Assembly (NCBI GenBank): GCA_013426805.1
Contig: JACDZG010000001.1
Span: 1 to 64,000 of the forward strand
DNA: 64,000 nucleotides
Origin: Chromatiaceae bacterium
GTDB taxonomy: Bacteria > Pseudomonadota > Gammaproteobacteria > Chromatiales > Chromatiaceae
Direction of reading: 5' to 3'
A program made the position numbers and the translations under genes. Shown one piece after another: positions 16,780-24,444 of the stretch; the first letter of the stretch is position 1; every line of letters begins with the position of its first letter. The notes beneath the pieces were generated by a model that made no database searches, was not told where the DNA came from, and saw only the letters and a program-made list of their open reading frames with translations.

Positions 16780-16794
16780 GGTTGACGACACCGG

Positions 16795-17781
16795 CTAGGT
16801 GATGCCCGCCAAGCTGTCCGGCAGCCGCGGATCAAGCAGGATCGCCTCCTGTTCGAGCCACCGGCCGCGGCGCCGCAGCAGTGCAAGTAGTCCGGCACCC
16901 CGGTCGGACTCAGTTCCGGGCCAACCCTGTCCCGGTCCGAGCGGCAACGCGTGCGTGTCCAGATAGTCGCTCCACCAATCCGGCAGAAATAAGCGCGGAC
17001 GGCGCAGTTCGCCGCCGAGCGCCGCGAAGATCGCGAGCCCTTCGGGATCAAGATCGCCGAAATGCCACCAGGAGACCTCCGCCGGCAGCAGGCCGATCAG
17101 GTGCCGGGCGAGCCGACAGTTCCAACCCGGTTGATGGACCACCAGGGCCTGGGACGGCGCCGGCAGATCCAGGTAGGCACCCAGATTCTCGACCGTCATC
17201 ACCCATCGGGGAAGGGTACCGCACAGGGAGAGACCATCGCACAGGGCGCGCTGGGGGATAACCAACTCACCAAGCGGGCGTACCCAATCGTCGCAGTCAC
17301 GTACTTCCCCGTCGGCGAAGCGCAGCGCCAGCCCCCGATTCGGGCGCAGCCGCAGCAGGTCGTCATCGGTGAGCACCAGAGTCGGCGGCGGCAGCGCATC
17401 CGGTGTACCCGCCTTGGAATGAGCCCCGAAGCGGGCCATCCAGGTCTTGCGATGCAATCGCGGCGGAAGCGCGGCCAGGGGTACTCCGCACCGGCGCAAC
17501 TGACGCAGCCCGGCCGCGTCGCAGGGAAGGCCCGCGGCTGCCAAAGCGGCCAGATCGCGTTGCCAGTCGGGCCAGCCGTCGGCCAGTCGGACCGCCACGG
17601 CCGCCCGCTTGGCCGGACGAAGCAGAAACAAGTCCCGACGCGAACCCTGACCAACCCATCCGGCCTCGCGCAACCAGTCCACCAGAGTTCCATTGGCGGC
17701 ATTGCGCCGGATCTCGCCGAACTCGAGAAGTGTGACCAAGGTCCATTGCAGATCCGGGTCCTGCCAGCTGAGCGCGCTCAT
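16795..17781 (-). CDS. jetD: JetD/MksG-like Wadjet subunit (TopoVI-A/Toprim-like nuclease)
   Basis: A 328-residue protein with a C-terminal Toprim-like domain of the DUF2220/JetD type. Toprim marks are the Glu in MTVENLGAYLDL (E198) and the DxD in WWHFGDLDPEGLAIF (D243, D245). The N-terminal half has a helix-rich segment and FLLRPAKRA, in the place of the DUF3322-like part. In Wadjet (JetABCD/MksBEFG) this subunit cuts plasmid DNA that has been extruded by the condensin. It is shorter than many JetD proteins (~400). Its ATG overlaps the mukB stop (ATGA), so it is the last gene of the operon. The catalytic acidic residues seem intact. Confidence 0.82.
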   Translation of the reverse strand: MSALSWQDPDLQWTLVTLLEFGEIRRNAANGTLVDWLREAGWVGQGSRRDLFLLRPAKRAAVAVRLADGWPDWQRDLAALAAAGLPCDAAGLRQLRRCGVPLAALPPRLHRKTWMARFGAHSKAGTPDALPPPTLVLTDDDLLRLRPNRGLALRFADGEVRDCDDWVRPLGELVIPQRALCDGLSLCGTLPRWVMTVENLGAYLDLPAPSQALVVHQPGWNCRLARHLIGLLPAEVSWWHFGDLDPEGLAIFAALGGELRRPRLFLPDWWSDYLDTHALPLGPGQGWPGTESDRGAGLLALLRRRGRWLEQEAILLDPRLPDSLAGIT

Positions 17782-20700
17782 GGATCGAGGTCCCGCATCC
17801 GCCGGCCCCGCACGATGACTTCCTCCGCACCTGTACTGTCGATGCGCCGGACCAGGCGGTAAATATGTCCGCGGCGGCCACGATCGGCAGCGGGCGCGGC
17901 GGCGAGCAGTTGAACCTGCATCTGTTCGCACAGCTCGGTCAGCGTGTCGAGTGATTCGGGACTCAGCCGGTTGGCCTCGTCGAGAAACAGGAAGCGCAAC
18001 GCCTGCCCGCCCTTGCGCCCCTTGAGCAGCGCCGCCTGCTGCTCCCAGGCATCAAGGATGACCACCAATACAGCGGCACCCACACCGATCGACTCGCCGG
18101 TGGAGAGTGCTCCGGCGCGGGCCTCCATCCAGGCGTCGCGGCCGAGGCGCTGCACCTGTACGCCAATGCGGATGTACTGGCGATAGTCGAGTAGATGCTC
18201 GCCCTGAATCTGACCGCCGCCAAGGTGTTGGTAGACGGCAGCGAGTGCATCCTCCAGCGGGGCGTCTTGCTCGAACAGGTCGGGTTGAGTGCGCATGGCG
18301 TCGAGCAGCTTCAGCATCATGGGCTGTCGTTCCAGATGGATGCGCACCCCCCTGATGGACCCGAAGCGCACGCGCGCAAGCCCCCGATTGAGACCGTGGA
18401 TCCGCGCCTCCTCCCGGCGGACCTTGACCAGAATGCTGTTGGCGATTTCTTCGGTGCTGTGCCTTAGCGACTGCTCCTGGTCCAGCAGTCGCTCGCGCAA
18501 CAGCGTGAGGTGCAGGCCAATCTGCTCCAGCGCGACCTGGGGGTCATCCGATTGGGCGATGTCGCGCGGGATGCTTTGCTCCAGAAACCCGCGCACCAGA
18601 CCCCAGGCACGCAGATCGCGTAGTCCAGCCGTACCTTCGGCGGATGCGGCACCGGGACCCCGCGCGAGCTGCTGTGCCAGATCCGTCCCGCCGTCGGCGT
18701 TCTTCACGGCCTCTCCCAACTGGCCGCGGCGCTCGCTGGCCAGCCCCATGACATTGGGCGGACCCAAACCCTGATAGATCTCGGCTACGCGGACTAGGCG
18801 GTCCAACACACCGAGCCGGGCGGCCTCGCGCCGCAAACCGATCCAGTTACGCCAATTGGGGCGCAGTTCTATCAGAGTCTTGCGCCAGGCGTCACGGGTC
18901 CTTGCCTGCTCCTTGTCGGCCTGATCGACACGGTTTGCAGCGACTGCTACATCCGCATGGAGCTGACGGTCCTCGCGATCCGCCTGCGCCAGCTCGGCCG
19001 CCGTGTCGGCGCGCAGCCGCTCGACCGCCGCCAGACCCTCGGCCGAACCATCCTCGCCGGTCTCAGCGAGTTGGTTCGCTCGTTCGTCCCAGCTTGCAGC
19101 CGTGGCCTTGAGTGCGGCGTCTGCGCTGTTGTGCGCCGCGCGCACCCGCTCCAGGGCCTGTTCCGCCTGGTCCTTCGTTTTTTCGGAAACGGCGACCCGC
19201 TCCCGGAGCGCGTCGAGCATCTCGCGCAATGCCCCGAGTGCACCATCCTGCTCCCTGAGCAGCGGCTCCTGGTCGGCATAGGCGAAGTGGAGTCGGCGCT
19301 CGGCAAGGTCCTTGAGCAGGTGTCTCGCCTTGGACCAATAGTCGAGTATCTGCCGAGCGGCGGTCTGTCGCCGATGCAGATTCTCCAGGTAGGCGCCACC
19401 GGGCGGGGCTTGCTGCAACTCCAGAAAGCCCTCGCGCAGGGTCTTGATGTCGGTTTGCGACCGCTCCAGCAGCGCCCGCGCCGCCTGGACCGCCTCGCGC
19501 TCCCGACGTAGCACCAGGAGACTGGTCGACCAGTCATCCTCGTCGAGCAGACCGGTATCGGGGAGGCAGTGCTCCAAAGCCGCGCCGATTTCCTCGGCCA
19601 GGGTCCGTTCGAGCTTCAGTGCCGCCAGGGCGGCCTCGTCGCGCTGCAATTGTTGGCCGCGCTCGCCTGCAATCCGGCGGTGATTGCGCAGTTCCATCTC
19701 AGGGGACGGCAGCATGAGCCAGCGCACCTCGGCGGCTAGCCGCCCGACTAGCTGGAGATGACCGCGTAAGCGCACGCGCTTGCCACGCAGCCCGTCGCGC
19801 TCCGCCTCGCACACCTGGACTGCCGTACGTAAGCGGGCGATCTCCTGATCGCGCGCCACCCGGCCCACCACCGGATGGTGCGGCTGCCGACTCAGACGCC
19901 AGACAGTCCCCATCTGCACCAATTCACTGTCACCCAGGGTCTGCCCCGGCGGGGGGCCGGCCAGCTCCCCGGCTGGGACCAGCCAGAGATGCTCAGGGCG
20001 CCGCTCCACCCCGACCGCGGTCGCTGCGGCTGCGGCGATGTCGTAGACCAGCACGGCCGAATGCAGGGGACCGAGGCGCGCTTCGATCATGGCCGCCTCC
20101 GCGGCCGGTACGGCATCGAAGCGCTCAGCCACCAATTGGCCGTCGAGCCGGTCGGCGAGACTGGCCAACGACTCGTCGAGCCGTCCGCCGCCAAACTCCA
20201 GTTGTTCCGCTTCTTCAACGAACTGCTTACGCTGCTCGTCCAGTTCCCTCAGCCGACTGCCGAGCGCGTCGTCTTGCCGCACCAACTCGACCCGAAGGAG
20301 TTCCAAGGTCTCTGACCCATCGATCAGCCACTCGTCTAGAGCCCGCAGTTCATCGGCCAGGGTCTGGACCCTGCGCCAAGTCTCCAGGTCCCGCTCCAGG
20401 GTTTCGGCGCGCTGACCAGCCAGGTCGCGCACGCGGCGATGCTCCGCGCAACGCTCGCTCAGATCGCCCAACTCGACGTCCAATGCACGGCTGCGCCGGG
20501 CCTGCTGCGCATGCGCCTCGCGCACCTGATTGGCACAATCCAGTGGGCCACACCTGGGCACCAGATGCTGAAGTTGCCGACGCAGGTCGGCTTGGGTGCG
20601 TGCCCGCACCTCGGCCTGTTGGATGCGCTCCGGCAGATCCTGAGCACGGGCCACGCGCTCCTCCAGATCCCGCAGTTCCGCATCCACTTGACACGCGGTG

Positions 20701-22178
20701 GCAGCGGCTTCGTGCTCAGCCACTGCATGCCCCGCCTGACGGACCAGGACGGCGAGTAACGTATCAAACCGCTGGCGGCGGGTTTCAGCACCGTCCAACG
20801 ATTGCTGCGTACTCGACACCGCCGTCAGGGCGGTCTGCCACTGGTCCTCGCATTCAACGAGCACGCCGTCCAGCCGGTCGGTATCCAACTCCCGGTCGGG
20901 TAGCGCGGCGCGAGCGTCGTTCAGGCTGGTCAAGGCGGCGTGGTACTGCCCCACTTTGGAGGCGATGGCCGCGAATGCGTCCTGGGCGTTGGCCAGGTTG
21001 CCCGTCAGCGCGTCGCGCTCCTGTTGTTCGTGCCGATGGCGCTCACGGGCGTTTGCCACCGCAGATTGGGCGGCCTCACAGTCGCGCGCGGTCAACGCCA
21101 GGGCTTGCTCCTGCGCCACGCGACGGGGCTTCAGGTTGTCCAACTCGGTGCGCAGACGGCGCGCCCGTTGGCAGCGCTCCAACAGCTCGGCGGTCTCGCG
21201 GTCCGCCGCCTGCAGGGGCACCAAGTTGCGCTGAATCTCCGCCTGACGACGGATGAGTCGCTCATGCTCCAACACTGCCTCCCGGAGCAGCAGGCGACAG
21301 TGCCGATGGCCTGCATGGGCCTCAGCGGCGCTCACCCGACGGGTTTCAGCGAACAGCCGGGTACCGTGGAAAGCGGCCTCCACCATACCCCACCCGAACC
21401 GAAAGACCTCGGCGATCAGCCGATAGCGTGCGTCGGCCTCGGCAATACGCCGACGGGTGATGCGGCAGGCGTCCAGGTTTTCGCGCATGCGCACGACATG
21501 GTTGCGTAGACGTTCGTCTTCGTTGAGCAAATAGTCGCGCAAGCCCTTTTGCAGCGCCCCGGAGAAGCCGCCGTACATGCTGGTATGCAGCATCTGGTGG
21601 AAACGCTGGCGGTCTTGCGACTGCTCCATACGCATGGGCAGGATGCCTAATTCGTGCAGATGTCCGCAGTAACGTCCGGCGGTCTCGTAGAGGCGCATGC
21701 TCGCGCCGGTTTGGGCGAACGCCTCGCGCAGCTCACCCAGATCAGGAATACGCTCGTTGTCCCCGTCTCGCAGCAGCACCAGGGCATCCAAATCCCGGTC
21801 CGCCGGCAGACCCTCGACCACGAAGCGCTTGAATTCGATATGCGGCGGGGCGCCACGCAGCAGGCAGACCCCGGCTACGACGCGGGCACCGTCGCCAGTG
21901 CGCAGATCGAGCAAACTGTAGCTTGGCCCCTTGTCACCCAGACGGCCGTAGATGCCCCGATCACCGTCACTGCTGCCCTCACCCTCGCCGATATTGCGGA
22001 AACTCAGCCGTTGCGGATCCGGCAACAGCGCGACAAAGGCGGCAATCATGACCGTGGTCTTGCCGGCCCCGTTCTCGCCTTCCAGTGCGGTAACCGCTTC
22101 GTGCAGCTCGAAGGGCTGAAAAAACAACCCTTTCCAGTTGAGTAACAGCAGCCGGCTGATCCGTGCCCTAACGCTCAT
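17778..22178 (-). CDS. mukB: MukB-like SMC condensin ATPase (JetC position)
   Basis: A 1466-residue SMC-like protein, close to the E. coli MukB length (1486) and longer than typical JetC/MksB. N-terminal head: RLLLLNWKGLFFQPFELHEA and Walker A EGENGAGKTTVM (residues ~33-44). Long heptad-rich coiled coils flank a hinge-like region near residues 640-770, which contains MGTVWRLSRQPHHPVVGR, comparable with the MukB hinge exit. C-terminal head: signature LSTGESIGVG (~1358) and Walker B RFLFLDEANRLSPES (~1396), followed by CEQMQVQLLAAAP, strikingly MukB-like. ATG 22178 (MSVRARIS) is preferred over the frame start at 22241 because the extra residues are low-complexity and only 11 bases overlap with mukE is then needed. 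Predicted DNA-loop-extruding motor. Confidence 0.9.
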   Translation of the reverse strand: MSVRARISRLLLLNWKGLFFQPFELHEAVTALEGENGAGKTTVMIAAFVALLPDPQRLSFRNIGEGEGSSDGDRGIYGRLGDKGPSYSLLDLRTGDGARVVAGVCLLRGAPPHIEFKRFVVEGLPADRDLDALVLLRDGDNERIPDLGELREAFAQTGASMRLYETAGRYCGHLHELGILPMRMEQSQDRQRFHQMLHTSMYGGFSGALQKGLRDYLLNEDERLRNHVVRMRENLDACRITRRRIAEADARYRLIAEVFRFGWGMVEAAFHGTRLFAETRRVSAAEAHAGHRHCRLLLREAVLEHERLIRRQAEIQRNLVPLQAADRETAELLERCQRARRLRTELDNLKPRRVAQEQALALTARDCEAAQSAVANARERHRHEQQERDALTGNLANAQDAFAAIASKVGQYHAALTSLNDARAALPDRELDTDRLDGVLVECEDQWQTALTAVSSTQQSLDGAETRRQRFDTLLAVLVRQAGHAVAEHEAAATACQVDAELRDLEERVARAQDLPERIQQAEVRARTQADLRRQLQHLVPRCGPLDCANQVREAHAQQARRSRALDVELGDLSERCAEHRRVRDLAGQRAETLERDLETWRRVQTLADELRALDEWLIDGSETLELLRVELVRQDDALGSRLRELDEQRKQFVEEAEQLEFGGGRLDESLASLADRLDGQLVAERFDAVPAAEAAMIEARLGPLHSAVLVYDIAAAAATAVGVERRPEHLWLVPAGELAGPPPGQTLGDSELVQMGTVWRLSRQPHHPVVGRVARDQEIARLRTAVQVCEAERDGLRGKRVRLRGHLQLVGRLAAEVRWLMLPSPEMELRNHRRIAGERGQQLQRDEAALAALKLERTLAEEIGAALEHCLPDTGLLDEDDWSTSLLVLRREREAVQAARALLERSQTDIKTLREGFLELQQAPPGGAYLENLHRRQTAARQILDYWSKARHLLKDLAERRLHFAYADQEPLLREQDGALGALREMLDALRERVAVSEKTKDQAEQALERVRAAHNSADAALKATAASWDERANQLAETGEDGSAEGLAAVERLRADTAAELAQADREDRQLHADVAVAANRVDQADKEQARTRDAWRKTLIELRPNWRNWIGLRREAARLGVLDRLVRVAEIYQGLGPPNVMGLASERRGQLGEAVKNADGGTDLAQQLARGPGAASAEGTAGLRDLRAWGLVRGFLEQSIPRDIAQSDDPQVALEQIGLHLTLLRERLLDQEQSLRHSTEEIANSILVKVRREEARIHGLNRGLARVRFGSIRGVRIHLERQPMMLKLLDAMRTQPDLFEQDAPLEDALAAVYQHLGGGQIQGEHLLDYRQYIRIGVQVQRLGRDAWMEARAGALSTGESIGVGAAVLVVILDAWEQQAALLKGRKGGQALRFLFLDEANRLSPESLDTLTELCEQMQVQLLAAAPAADRGRRGHIYRLVRRIDSTGAEEVIVRGRRMRDLDP

Positions 22179-22878
22179 CCGGGTCCTCGCCGTCGTCGGG
22201 GAGCGCGGCGACGGCGGTGTCATCCGGGGCCTCGGAGGCATCCCGCGCGGGATCGCCGAATTCCACCTCTCCTTCCAAAACCAATCGCTCCAACGCCTCC
22301 CGCGGGTCGGCGGAACCGCGGACCGCGGCGACGAAGCGCATCAGTGGACGCCGCGGCAACAACTCGGCCGTGTCGCGCCGCTGGCGCACGAAACCCAGTG
22401 CCTCCAGCCCATTGAGGGCCTTGTCCACCGCTTCGCGGATACGGCGGTCGTCCGCGTGGTGTTCGCGGGCGCGGCTGCGCGGGGCCAGTTGCGACGCCAG
22501 GCGCTCACGCCCGAGCAGATGTTCCAAGGTTTCAAGGACCTTGGTACGCGGAATCCAACCAGTCTGGCTCAACCAGACCGGGTCCATGCGCATCAAGGCC
22601 AGCACTTGACCAACCAGCATCTCGGCCAAGCTCAGCCGGCGGTGTCCGAGCAAGTCGCCCTCGGAGCGCAGATACCAATAACCTTCAGGGGCTTGAATCA
22701 AACGGCACTGATAGCCGGCGTAAAAGCCTTGCAGCCAGTCCGCCGTGTAGAGCAAGAACTCGTAATCGGCGATGTCGTCGCTGTCCACATGAAAGCCGCA
22801 GCGCAGGCGATGGTCAATGCAGGGAAACAGCGGGTCTGAGATTACGGACTCAAGACTGTGATAACGATCGTCATCCAT
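22168..22878 (-). CDS. mukE: MukE-like condensin subunit (JetB position)
   Basis: A 236-residue protein matching MukE (E. coli 234) along its length. The blocks ISDPLFPCIDHRLRCGFHV, LIQAPEGYWYLRSE, LAEMLVGQVLALMRMDP and, near the end, RGSADPREALERLVLEGE all have MukE counterparts. MukE is a dimeric winged-helix KITE protein that binds the kleisin. The C-terminal ~35 residues are acidic, as in MukE. It overlaps mukF by eight bases and mukB by eleven. Confidence 0.9.
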   Translation of the reverse strand: MDDDRYHSLESVISDPLFPCIDHRLRCGFHVDSDDIADYEFLLYTADWLQGFYAGYQCRLIQAPEGYWYLRSEGDLLGHRRLSLAEMLVGQVLALMRMDPVWLSQTGWIPRTKVLETLEHLLGRERLASQLAPRSRAREHHADDRRIREAVDKALNGLEALGFVRQRRDTAELLPRRPLMRFVAAVRGSADPREALERLVLEGEVEFGDPARDASEAPDDTAVAALPDDGEDPDER

Positions 22879-24208
22879 CGCGCTGTGCTTCCCTGGCGGT
22901 CCGCTCGACGACCAGATTCTGCACCTCCAGACGGCGGCCGAGCGGTATCCATTGCCAACCCTGGGGCGGCAGCGGCTCCCCCTGCGCCAACATCCATCTA
23001 ACCAACGCACCCGCCATCAGAAACAGCTCCTCGTCCGAATGGCTGGGAAGCCGTTCGTGCAACAGATCCCACAGGTCGAGGCGGCCAGTCTGGTTCATCT
23101 GTGCATGCAGGGCAGCAAAGACCCGCTCCAGCGGATCGGTTTCGGCTAACGCGTCAACGAGCCTATCGTCGCGCTCAGTCCGCCGACGAACCACGGCCTT
23201 GGTGTCCAGACCGGACTCCGGCTCCCGCAGGTGGCGATAGGGGGTCTGGGCGGCGCAACGCAGATGCCAGGGTAACTCGGTGTAGCTTTTGAGCCCATCA
23301 CGCAAGCGCGCCCGCAGGGCCCGATCGCGGTCGACCCGGACGATCGTGCGAATAAACTCATGCACGTTCTGATAGTAGGCTGACCACGACTGAAATCGGC
23401 TGTCACCCCAGGCGGCGACCCGCTCGATCTGGGTACGGACATAGCTGACGGCATCCAGCGCAGCGTCCTGATCGGCATCGTCGGCAGCCTCGAAAATCTC
23501 GTTGAGCAAATTCGCGACCCCCTCAGTCTCGGACATCAGGGTATGGTTCAGCTCCTGCAGGGTCACACCGGTGTTCTGCAACAGCGTCTCGCAACGCGCA
23601 ATGGCCTCGAACCACTGGGCCTCCAACAACTGGCCGATCTGCTCGCGGATCTCTTGCTGCTGGACATCCATCCCCCGCTGGCGACGGTCGATCATCTCAA
23701 CGAGTCCGGCGACCGTGAGCTTCAGTGGGCTCACCACCCGGGCGCGCCAATGGGTCTCGTCCCCGCCCAGAAGCGCGGCCTGACGGACCCCGGCGAGGTC
23801 CCCACGGATACGCGTGAGCATCACTTCCAGCCCCTCGCGATCAAGGCCCTCTTGCGCTCCAAACCATTCAGCCAGGGTCTTGCCCAAGGGGCTCAAAGAA
23901 AACTCGCCCGCCGTCGAAACACCACCGAAATCGGACCGGACGAGCAGGTGCTGTGCGCACAGTGCGTCGATCGCATAAGTGGCGCGCTGCGCGACCGCCC
24001 CGGTCTCGCCTTGCACGATGTCGTTGAGCAGTCCGAAGATATCGCGCAACTGCTCCTCGGTGAGAACGGGGTCCGGATTCAGTTCCAGGAAGGCATGGAT
24101 GCCGCTCAAATAAGCGAGCCGCTCCCGGTCGAGCTGGAGCGACCTATCGGCGGCCCAGGTGCGGGCGATCCGATCAGCGACGTCTCTTGGACCGTCGTCT
24201 TGCGCCAC
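22871..24208 (-). CDS. mukF: MukF-like kleisin (JetA position)
   Basis: A 445-residue protein close to MukF in length (E. coli 440) and blocks: ATYAIDALCAQHLLVRSDF, HWRARVVSPLKLTVAGLVE, QIGQLLEAQWFEAIARCE, YYQNVHEFIRTIVRVDRD and a C-terminal winged-helix end (GWQWIPLGRRLEVQNLVVE). MukF bridges the two MukB heads and carries MukE. I chose the GTG at 24208, which has an AGGGGG site six bases upstream and gives the MukF-like N-terminus; the earlier GTG at 24256 has no ribosome site. It is the first gene of the overlapping four-gene operon. Confidence 0.88.
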   Translation of the reverse strand: MAQDDGPRDVADRIARTWAADRSLQLDRERLAYLSGIHAFLELNPDPVLTEEQLRDIFGLLNDIVQGETGAVAQRATYAIDALCAQHLLVRSDFGGVSTAGEFSLSPLGKTLAEWFGAQEGLDREGLEVMLTRIRGDLAGVRQAALLGGDETHWRARVVSPLKLTVAGLVEMIDRRQRGMDVQQQEIREQIGQLLEAQWFEAIARCETLLQNTGVTLQELNHTLMSETEGVANLLNEIFEAADDADQDAALDAVSYVRTQIERVAAWGDSRFQSWSAYYQNVHEFIRTIVRVDRDRALRARLRDGLKSYTELPWHLRCAAQTPYRHLREPESGLDTKAVVRRRTERDDRLVDALAETDPLERVFAALHAQMNQTGRLDLWDLLHERLPSHSDEELFLMAGALVRWMLAQGEPLPPQGWQWIPLGRRLEVQNLVVERTAREAQRDG

Positions 24209-24444
24209 CAACTGCCCCCTGCCCGCCGTTAGCGAATGTTCGCGAGTATACGCCACTCGTGCGCGGGTGCTCGGACCATACCGCGCCGCGTCAGCACAGT
24301 GGACACCGGTACTTCGTCCTGTCCACCCACTCGCAAGTTGCTACACGAAACGCTCTTACGCGGGAAAAAAAGGTTGCATCGACCCGCCAACCGCTGAAAG
24401 ATCCGCGCATCCTGACGTAACCCCAAGCGGACGGAGGGCCCATC

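What the first reader, a model, noticed from the sequence alone, without database searches (positions are those of the whole stretch)
16795..24208. MukBEF-type condensin coupled to a JetD nuclease: a possible MukBEF-branch Wadjet system
Seen: four overlapping genes encode proteins with MukF-, MukE- and MukB-specific blocks and lengths (445, 236 and 1466 residues against 440, 234 and 1486 in E. coli), followed by a Toprim/JetD-like protein with its acidic residues intact. Known: Wadjet (JetABCD/MksBEFG) condensins normally have a shorter, MksB-type SMC, while the housekeeping MukBEF of enterobacteria has no JetD. Inference: this is either an intermediate between plasmid-defence Mks/Wadjet systems and chromosomal MukBEF, or a Wadjet variant that captured MukBEF-type subunits. 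It would be informative about how MukBEF arose, presumably by loss of JetD.
Basis: partly seen in the sequence, partly recalled or inferred. Interest (0 to 1): 0.82.

Follow-up and report, generated by a model that had tools for sequence, protein, structure and literature searches.

The report
MukBEF condensin armed with JetD nuclease
A purple sulfur bacterium carries, besides its normal chromosome-packing machine, a mobile second one of the kind E. coli uses to pack its chromosome, here joined to a DNA-cutting enzyme of the Wadjet plasmid-defence system; relics of the same cutter beside the ordinary machine in Aeromonas and a related genus suggest that E. coli's chromosome packer descends from a plasmid-killing weapon.

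Summary
Four overlapping minus-strand genes encode MukF, MukE, MukB and a JetD-like Toprim protein. The MukB (784 bits) passes NCBI's MukB equivalog cut-off; Wadjet JetC type I-III models score at most 25 bits, so PADLOC would miss it. The genome also has Smc-ScpAB. A congener lacks exactly this 7.6 kb segment, so it is a mobile accessory module.

Relatives occur in Chromatiaceae, Burkholderia, Plasticicumulans, a Desulfobacterota MAG and, as a second MukBEF, in Kluyvera, Klebsiella, Tatumella and one E. coli. Three sit beside other defence genes (CBASS, AbiE, UvrD helicase). Best reading: a MukBEF-branch Wadjet that destroys invading circular DNA (not tested).

Beyond the finding: JetD homologues of the same sub-family persist next to housekeeping mukFEB. 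They lie 2-10 kb downstream with catalytic residues intact in Aeromonas. In one genome of another genus the homologue is 3 bp after mukB, with two catalytic acids replaced. JetD and MukB trees fall into the same three lineages. This supports the proposed but unproven origin of MukBEF from a JetD-armed ancestor. "Captured subunits" is not supported. The branching order of the three lineages is unresolved, and types II/III were compared by profile only.

The parts
22871..24208 (-). mukF-like kleisin, 445 aa, GTG start (an in-frame GTG at 24256 would give 461 aa)
   Evidence: Pfam KicB, MukF_M, MukF_C over cut-off; NCBIfam MukF 274 bits over residues 8-407, below the 407 cut-off
22168..22878 (-). 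mukE-like KITE subunit, 236 aa
   Evidence: Pfam MukE 114 bits, MksE 85 bits; PADLOC JetB1 only 15.7 bits
17778..22178 (-). mukB-like SMC ATPase, 1466 aa, with Walker A GENGAGKTT, ALSTGES signature and Walker B FLFLDEANR
   Evidence: NCBIfam MukB 784.5 bits against cut-off 699; Pfam MukB N-terminal and MukB hinge; PADLOC JetC at most 25 bits; motifs
16795..17781 (-). jetD-like nuclease, 328 aa: winged-helix N-terminal part and Toprim domain, acids E198, D243, D245, E310, E312 intact
   Evidence: Pfam JetD_C 30.8 bits against cut-off 22; AlphaFold model best matches MksG 8b7f, JetD 7til and topoisomerase VI-A; residues
16783..24358 (.). 7.6 kb accessory module absent from the same site in congener G006, where the two flanking genes are neighbours
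   Evidence: blastn of the window against L187 and junction sequences

Best explanation
The locus is a MukBEF-branch Wadjet. A MukBEF-type loop-extruding condensin (dimer of MukB dimers, kleisin MukF, KITE MukE) loads on DNA and reels it in. Shown here: gene content, intact ATPase and nuclease motifs, JetD fold, horizontal accessory distribution, co-occurrence of this MukB with JetD in non-enterobacterial genomes, defence-gene neighbours of relatives. Inferred from the ordinary type I Wadjet: loop extrusion, size or topology sensing, plasmid cleavage. Evolution (inferred): JetD was part of the ancestor of all MukB-type complexes. Two lineages (window type and Kluyvera type) stay armed and mobile. 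The third became the housekeeping condensin of enterobacteria and relatives and lost JetD almost everywhere, leaving relics in Aeromonas and one related genus.
For: Motifs and families. JetD fold. Of 55 relatives, the same three genomes have JetD and full-length MukB, while 51, including those three, have ScpB. Smc is present in the six non-enterobacterial Pseudomonadota hosts tested (in the window's own genome the hit runs to a contig end). In a class sample of 369, three genomes have MukB: two with JetD, and one whose MukB scores like a housekeeping copy. Clean empty site in G006. Relatives beside AbiE, CBASS, PDC-S06 and UvrD helicase genes. Relics: a JetD 2.4-10.3 kb downstream of and co-oriented with housekeeping mukB in 9 Aeromonas genomes plus A. 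caviae. In G474, mukF-mukE-mukB-jetD with 3 bp between mukB and jetD and acids changed E198Q, D245A. Three sister genomes keep an intact jetD, in G454 shown to lie in the same flanking block, while mukFEB lies elsewhere. Housekeeping-linked JetDs form one clade, 97/93, and grouping with the window type or Kluyvera type is rejected, AU p 0.00006-0.005.
Against: No activity has been measured. In the window itself the module is flanked by ordinary metabolic and transport genes, not a defence island. Relics are seen in only two genera. In Aeromonas other genes lie between mukB and jetD, and presence is patchy. The mukB-linked Aeromonas JetD is not the closest relative of the G474 one in the best tree (p 0.066 for joining them), so duplication or transfer must be added. 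Branching order among the three MukB-type lineages is unresolved, and the outgroup is type I JetC only.
Confidence: 0.77

Rival explanations
1. The module is a second chromosome-organising condensin (like MksBEF of Pseudomonas aeruginosa), with JetD acting as a topoisomerase-like or repair partner rather than a defence effector.
For: MukB passes the chromosome-partition MukB cut-off. JetD resembles topoisomerase VI-A. The window site is not a defence island.
Against: Smc-ScpAB is already present. The module is absent from most congeners and precisely missing in one. Relatives sit with CBASS and AbiE. JetD keeps the acids that correspond to the metal-binding and proposed nucleophilic residues of the plasmid-degrading MksG (PMC10123090).
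Confidence: 0.15
2. An ordinary Wadjet whose SMC, kleisin and KITE subunits were replaced by captured housekeeping MukBEF subunits.
For: Subunits score as Muk, nuclease as JetD.
Against: Window-type MukB is a separate lineage (99/97) from housekeeping MukB (83/92). In the best tree its JetD stands with other MukB-associated JetDs, and ordinary JetD is apart (100/100), although joining the window group with ordinary JetD is not formally rejected (p 0.278). Both trees show the same groups.
Confidence: 0.04
3. The JetD genes near housekeeping mukB in Aeromonas and the second genus are later acquisitions from mobile MukBEF-JetD modules, not relics; housekeeping MukBEF never lost a JetD.
For: Patchy presence and variable spacing in Aeromonas; linked copies are not each other's closest relatives; only two of many MukB-bearing genera have them.
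Against: They form one clade distinct from both mobile types (97/93; AU p 0.00006-0.005 for alternatives). They occur in the two families whose MukBs form one clade (96/100). One lies in the mukFEB operon itself, and the jetD flanking block is conserved in a sister genome.
Confidence: 0.25

Closest known systems
Wadjet type I (JetABCD / MksBEFG), e.g. P. aeruginosa PA14, C. glutamicum
   Same: Operon of kleisin, KITE, SMC and Toprim nuclease; JetD fold and acids; accessory, defence-associated distribution
   Different: Subunits are Muk-type: PADLOC JetA no hit, JetB 15.7 bits, JetC 25 bits (ordinary JetC scores about 680-1860 bits against its best model). SMC 1466 aa instead of about 1110-1225. 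JetD 328 aa, shorter than the roughly 360-440 aa of ordinary JetDs, matched by JetD models only in its Toprim part
MukBEF of E. coli and relatives
   Same: MukB about 29% identical end to end to E. coli MukB with a MukB-specific hinge; similar subunit lengths and gene order mukF-mukE-mukB
   Different: Has JetD; co-exists with Smc-ScpAB; mobile; separate lineage in the tree
MksBEF without MksG (P. aeruginosa PAO1)
   Same: Muk-like second condensin beside Smc (own knowledge and PMC10586767)
   Different: The window system has a nuclease, and its SMC matches MukB rather than the short MksB
Wadjet group as surveyed in PMC7617805 (Cell 2025; Figure S1A, Data S1)
   Same: They treat MukBEF as a Wadjet-group member lacking MksG and collected operons with and without MksG
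   Different: The text does not describe MukBEF-type operons with MksG/JetD or relics beside housekeeping mukB; Data S1 could not be read here and may list such operons

Membership tests
Wadjet (broad sense: Muk/Mks/Jet condensin plus JetD nuclease) | Co-directional operon of kleisin, KITE, SMC and JetD | tested here: met
Wadjet (broad sense: Muk/Mks/Jet condensin plus JetD nuclease) | JetD with winged-helix/CAP and Toprim parts and metal-binding acids | tested here: met
   the N-terminal part rests on a moderate-confidence model
Wadjet (broad sense: Muk/Mks/Jet condensin plus JetD nuclease) | Restricts plasmid establishment | not testable with these tools
   needs transformation assays
Wadjet types I, II or III (PADLOC subtype models) | JetA/B/C subunits match the subtype models | tested here: not met
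   JetA none, JetB1 15.7 bits, JetC1 25.3, JetC2 10.7, JetC3 7.2
MukBEF (housekeeping) | MukB equivalog | tested here: met
   784.5 bits against 699
MukBEF (housekeeping) | MukE and MukF equivalogs | tested here: not met
   114 against 250 and 274 against 407, though most of each model is matched
MukBEF (housekeeping) | Replaces Smc-ScpAB as the genome's condensin | tested here: not met
   ScpB and Smc present
MukBEF (housekeeping) | Falls in the housekeeping MukB clade | tested here: not met

The most novel reading that the evidence does not exclude
Housekeeping MukBEF of E. coli and relatives is a disarmed Wadjet: its ancestor carried JetD in the mukFEB operon, and the step is caught in the act. 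JetD is intact and linked in Aeromonas, has lost catalytic acids inside the operon of genome G474, and is gone elsewhere. The intact Aeromonas JetD may still work with the housekeeping MukBEF, so that one complex both packs the chromosome and cuts plasmids.
Probability: 0.5. Interest if true: 0.9.

Novelty: new variant of a known kind. Interest (0 to 1): 0.76.

Why it matters
A review proposes that a Wadjet-like defence system gave rise to MukBEF but calls the relationship unresolved (PMC10586767). The armed MukBEF lineages, and the intact and inactivated JetD relics beside housekeeping mukFEB, make this testable by sequence and by experiment. They also show a Wadjet branch that PADLOC-DB 2.0.0 does not model, in several enterobacteria including one sequenced E. 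coli, and offer a natural comparison of the same motor with and without its nuclease.

Tried and rejected
Viral contigs and phage records hold no relative of this JetD. Plasmid records gave two records: a Burkholderia megaplasmid and an Aeromonas chromosome filed as a plasmid. Two attempts to find type II or III JetC sequences for the tree found only housekeeping MukB, the known Burkholderia record, or further JetC, and the JetCs used in the tree all typed as type I, so types II/III are compared by profile score only. Branching order of the three MukB-type lineages: all arrangements tested are about equally likely. The JetD tree does not reject joining the window group with ordinary JetD as one side (p 0.278), so the root of the MukB-type JetDs is not fixed. 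JetD near other housekeeping mukB: none in 28 loci of 10 families (a few contigs end early). Promoter or terminator at the mukF start: none by consensus. Petrushenko 2011 is not held. The genus name of genomes G410, G434, G454 and G474 could not be learned.

Full report
WHAT IS THERE. The window lies in contig C98 of a 7.6 Mb genome in the same genus as genome G002, whose contig matches one of Lamprocystis purpurea DSM 4197 in length and content. On the minus strand at 24208-16795 four genes overlap end to start: mukF (445 aa), mukE (236), mukB (1466) and jetD (328). Pfam cut-offs are passed for all MukF domains, MukE, MukB N-terminus, MukB hinge and JetD_C. MukB reaches 784.5 bits on NCBI's MukB equivalog (cut-off 699), while MukF and MukE match most of their models but below cut-off. 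PADLOC gives MukF nothing, MukE 15.7 bits to JetB1, MukB 25 bits to JetC1, 10.7 to JetC2 and 7.2 to JetC3. Ordinary JetC proteins score about 680-1860 bits on their best models. Length is not a criterion, since most type II and III JetC profiles seen are about 1355-1472 positions long.

THE NUCLEASE. The JetD model (mean pLDDT 79.5, pTM 0.58) has an N-terminal winged-helix part and a C-terminal Toprim part. Its best Foldseek matches are MksG (8b7f), JetD (7til), Spo11 and topoisomerase VI-A; the structural realignment gives Z 14.4 to 8b7f over 164 residues and 12.2 to 7til over 168. A profile search of PDB sequences also finds topoisomerase VI-A and MksG, weakly. E198, D243, D245 and E310/E312 are conserved with an ordinary JetD. 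MksG was reported to bind metal through E236 and D279, with E349/E351 proposed as nucleophilic residues (PMC10123090). I equate these with E198, D243 and E310/E312 by motif; this is inference.

AN ACCESSORY MODULE. Of 55 relatives, three have this JetD and the same three have MukB over cut-off; 51, including these three, have ScpB. Smc is found in G000 (hit running to a contig end), G002, G022, G343 and the hosts of L036 and L040; it was not found in the Syntrophobacteraceae MAG, Kluyvera or Tatumella. Congener G006 has the two flanking genes next to each other and lacks exactly positions 16783-24358. Flanks in the window are a 2OG-Fe oxygenase, an anion transporter, an unassigned 437-aa protein, N-formylglutamate amidohydrolase and CorA, and GC content is not deviant. 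Against L. purpurea, mukE, mukB and jetD have dN/dS 0.11, 0.20 and 0.15. mukF differs at only 2 of 1335 bases while mukB differs at 124 of 4395, so the module looks like a recombinant mosaic.

RELATIVES. Window-type mukF-mukE-mukB-jetD occurs in Lamprocystis purpurea, a further Chromatiaceae MAG (and in part on a short contig of another), G343, Plasticicumulans lactativorans, Burkholderia pyrrocinia megaplasmid pBPJTT and (with broken frames) a Syntrophobacteraceae MAG. In G343 the neighbours are an integrase, PDC-S06, AbiEi/AbiEii and a CBASS cyclase with E1-E2; in Burkholderia a CBASS cyclase and a SAVED endonuclease effector. A second, more divergent type with a MukE, a MukB of 1527 aa and a JetD sits in Kluyvera, Klebsiella indica, Phytobacter, Tatumella and Enterobacteriaceae RIT714, and in one of 5426 complete E. 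coli genomes (DETEC-P881), where NCBI already labels the neighbours MukB and JetD. Kluyvera and Tatumella lack Smc, and E. coli has MukBEF as its condensin, so there this is an extra MukBEF.

RELICS BESIDE HOUSEKEEPING MUKFEB. A profile of these JetDs was searched in 395 genomes of the order that includes the enterobacteria; it hit 26 genomes in three genera. In Aeromonas (genus g329, identified by a MukB 96% identical to that of A. caviae) an A-type JetD occurs in 12 of the 21 genomes listed and in A. caviae. Its catalytic acids are intact in all 13. Where both genes share a contig it lies 2.4-10.3 kb downstream of housekeeping mukB in the same orientation in 9 of 10 genomes, plus A. caviae at 7.2 kb; G676 is the exception. 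In genus g307, genome G474 has mukF-mukE-mukB-jetD in one run with 3 bp between mukB and jetD; this jetD has Q for E198 and A for D245. Three sister genomes have an intact jetD away from mukFEB; in G454 it lies next to the same downstream genes as in G474. All 21 Aeromonas genomes also carry a B-type homologue, in most cases with catalytic acids replaced, and not near mukB in the loci examined. In 28 housekeeping mukB loci from ten families outside these genera no JetD was found downstream.

TREES. SMC-head trees under LG+R4 and LG+C20 separate MukB-type proteins from type I JetC (100/100) and give three MukB-type groups: window type (99/99 and 99/97; bootstrap/SH-aLRT), Kluyvera type (100/100), and housekeeping (100/100 and 83/92). 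Aeromonas and g307 belong to one sub-clade of the last (97/94 and 96/100). The order among the three cannot be told. JetD trees give matching groups: window type (91/93), Kluyvera type (100/99) and housekeeping-linked (97/93), with ordinary JetD apart (100/100). Placing Aeromonas A-type or g307 JetD with the mobile types is rejected (p 0.00006-0.005), while joining A-type with g307 to the exclusion of B-type is not (p 0.066). Because all three MukB-type groups and ordinary Wadjet have JetD, parsimony puts JetD in their common ancestor whatever the order.

MECHANISM AND VERDICT. By homology to type I Wadjet, I infer that the MukBEF motor extrudes DNA and licenses JetD to cut circles that it has reeled in completely. 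No step of this was tested. A review proposes that Wadjet gave rise to MukBEF and calls the origin unresolved (PMC10586767). The 2025 survey of the Wadjet group states that MukBEF lacks MksG/JetD (PMC7617805); its supplementary operon list could not be read and may contain such loci. In the searches made, no held paper was found that describes MukBEF-type operons with JetD or JetD relics beside mukFEB. I rate this a new variant of Wadjet whose main value is evolutionary.

Noticed in passing
L100:2586-10092 (genome G474): Housekeeping mukF-mukE-mukB followed after 3 bp by a jetD homologue with E198Q and D245A: apparently an inactivated JetD in the operon.
   Followed up: yes
L093:9180-10148 and equivalents in L094-L098, L104: All 21 Aeromonas genomes listed carry a second JetD homologue (B-type) not found near mukB, mostly with catalytic acids replaced; its role is unknown.
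   Followed up: partly
L190:5343-14230 (E. coli DETEC-P881): A second MukE-MukB-JetD operon in one of 5426 complete E. coli genomes; the mukF position holds two short ORFs (309 and 167 aa), so mukF may be frameshifted. A gene of about 332 aa upstream recurs in Kluyvera and Tatumella.
   Followed up: partly
window 22871-24208 versus 17778-22178: Against L. purpurea mukF differs at 2 of 1335 bases but mukB at 124 of 4395: the module looks like a recombinant mosaic.
   Followed up: partly
L039:2560-8352 (Syntrophobacteraceae MAG): MukFEB-JetD with broken frames and no hinge-region match between the two MukB segments; decay or assembly error.
   Followed up: no
L033:1888-2302 (genome G061): Fragment of a JetD-like Toprim domain in two frames without a condensin nearby.
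   Followed up: no
L185:1119-7178 (Agathobacter rectalis plasmid): JetA, JetB and JetC followed by a carbonic anhydrase gene and no JetD: an ordinary Wadjet core that seems to lack its nuclease.
   Followed up: no
NZ_AP026896.1: A 4.9 Mb Aeromonas caviae chromosome is filed as a plasmid in PLSDB; several E. coli and Proteus chromosomes seem to be filed likewise.
   Followed up: no
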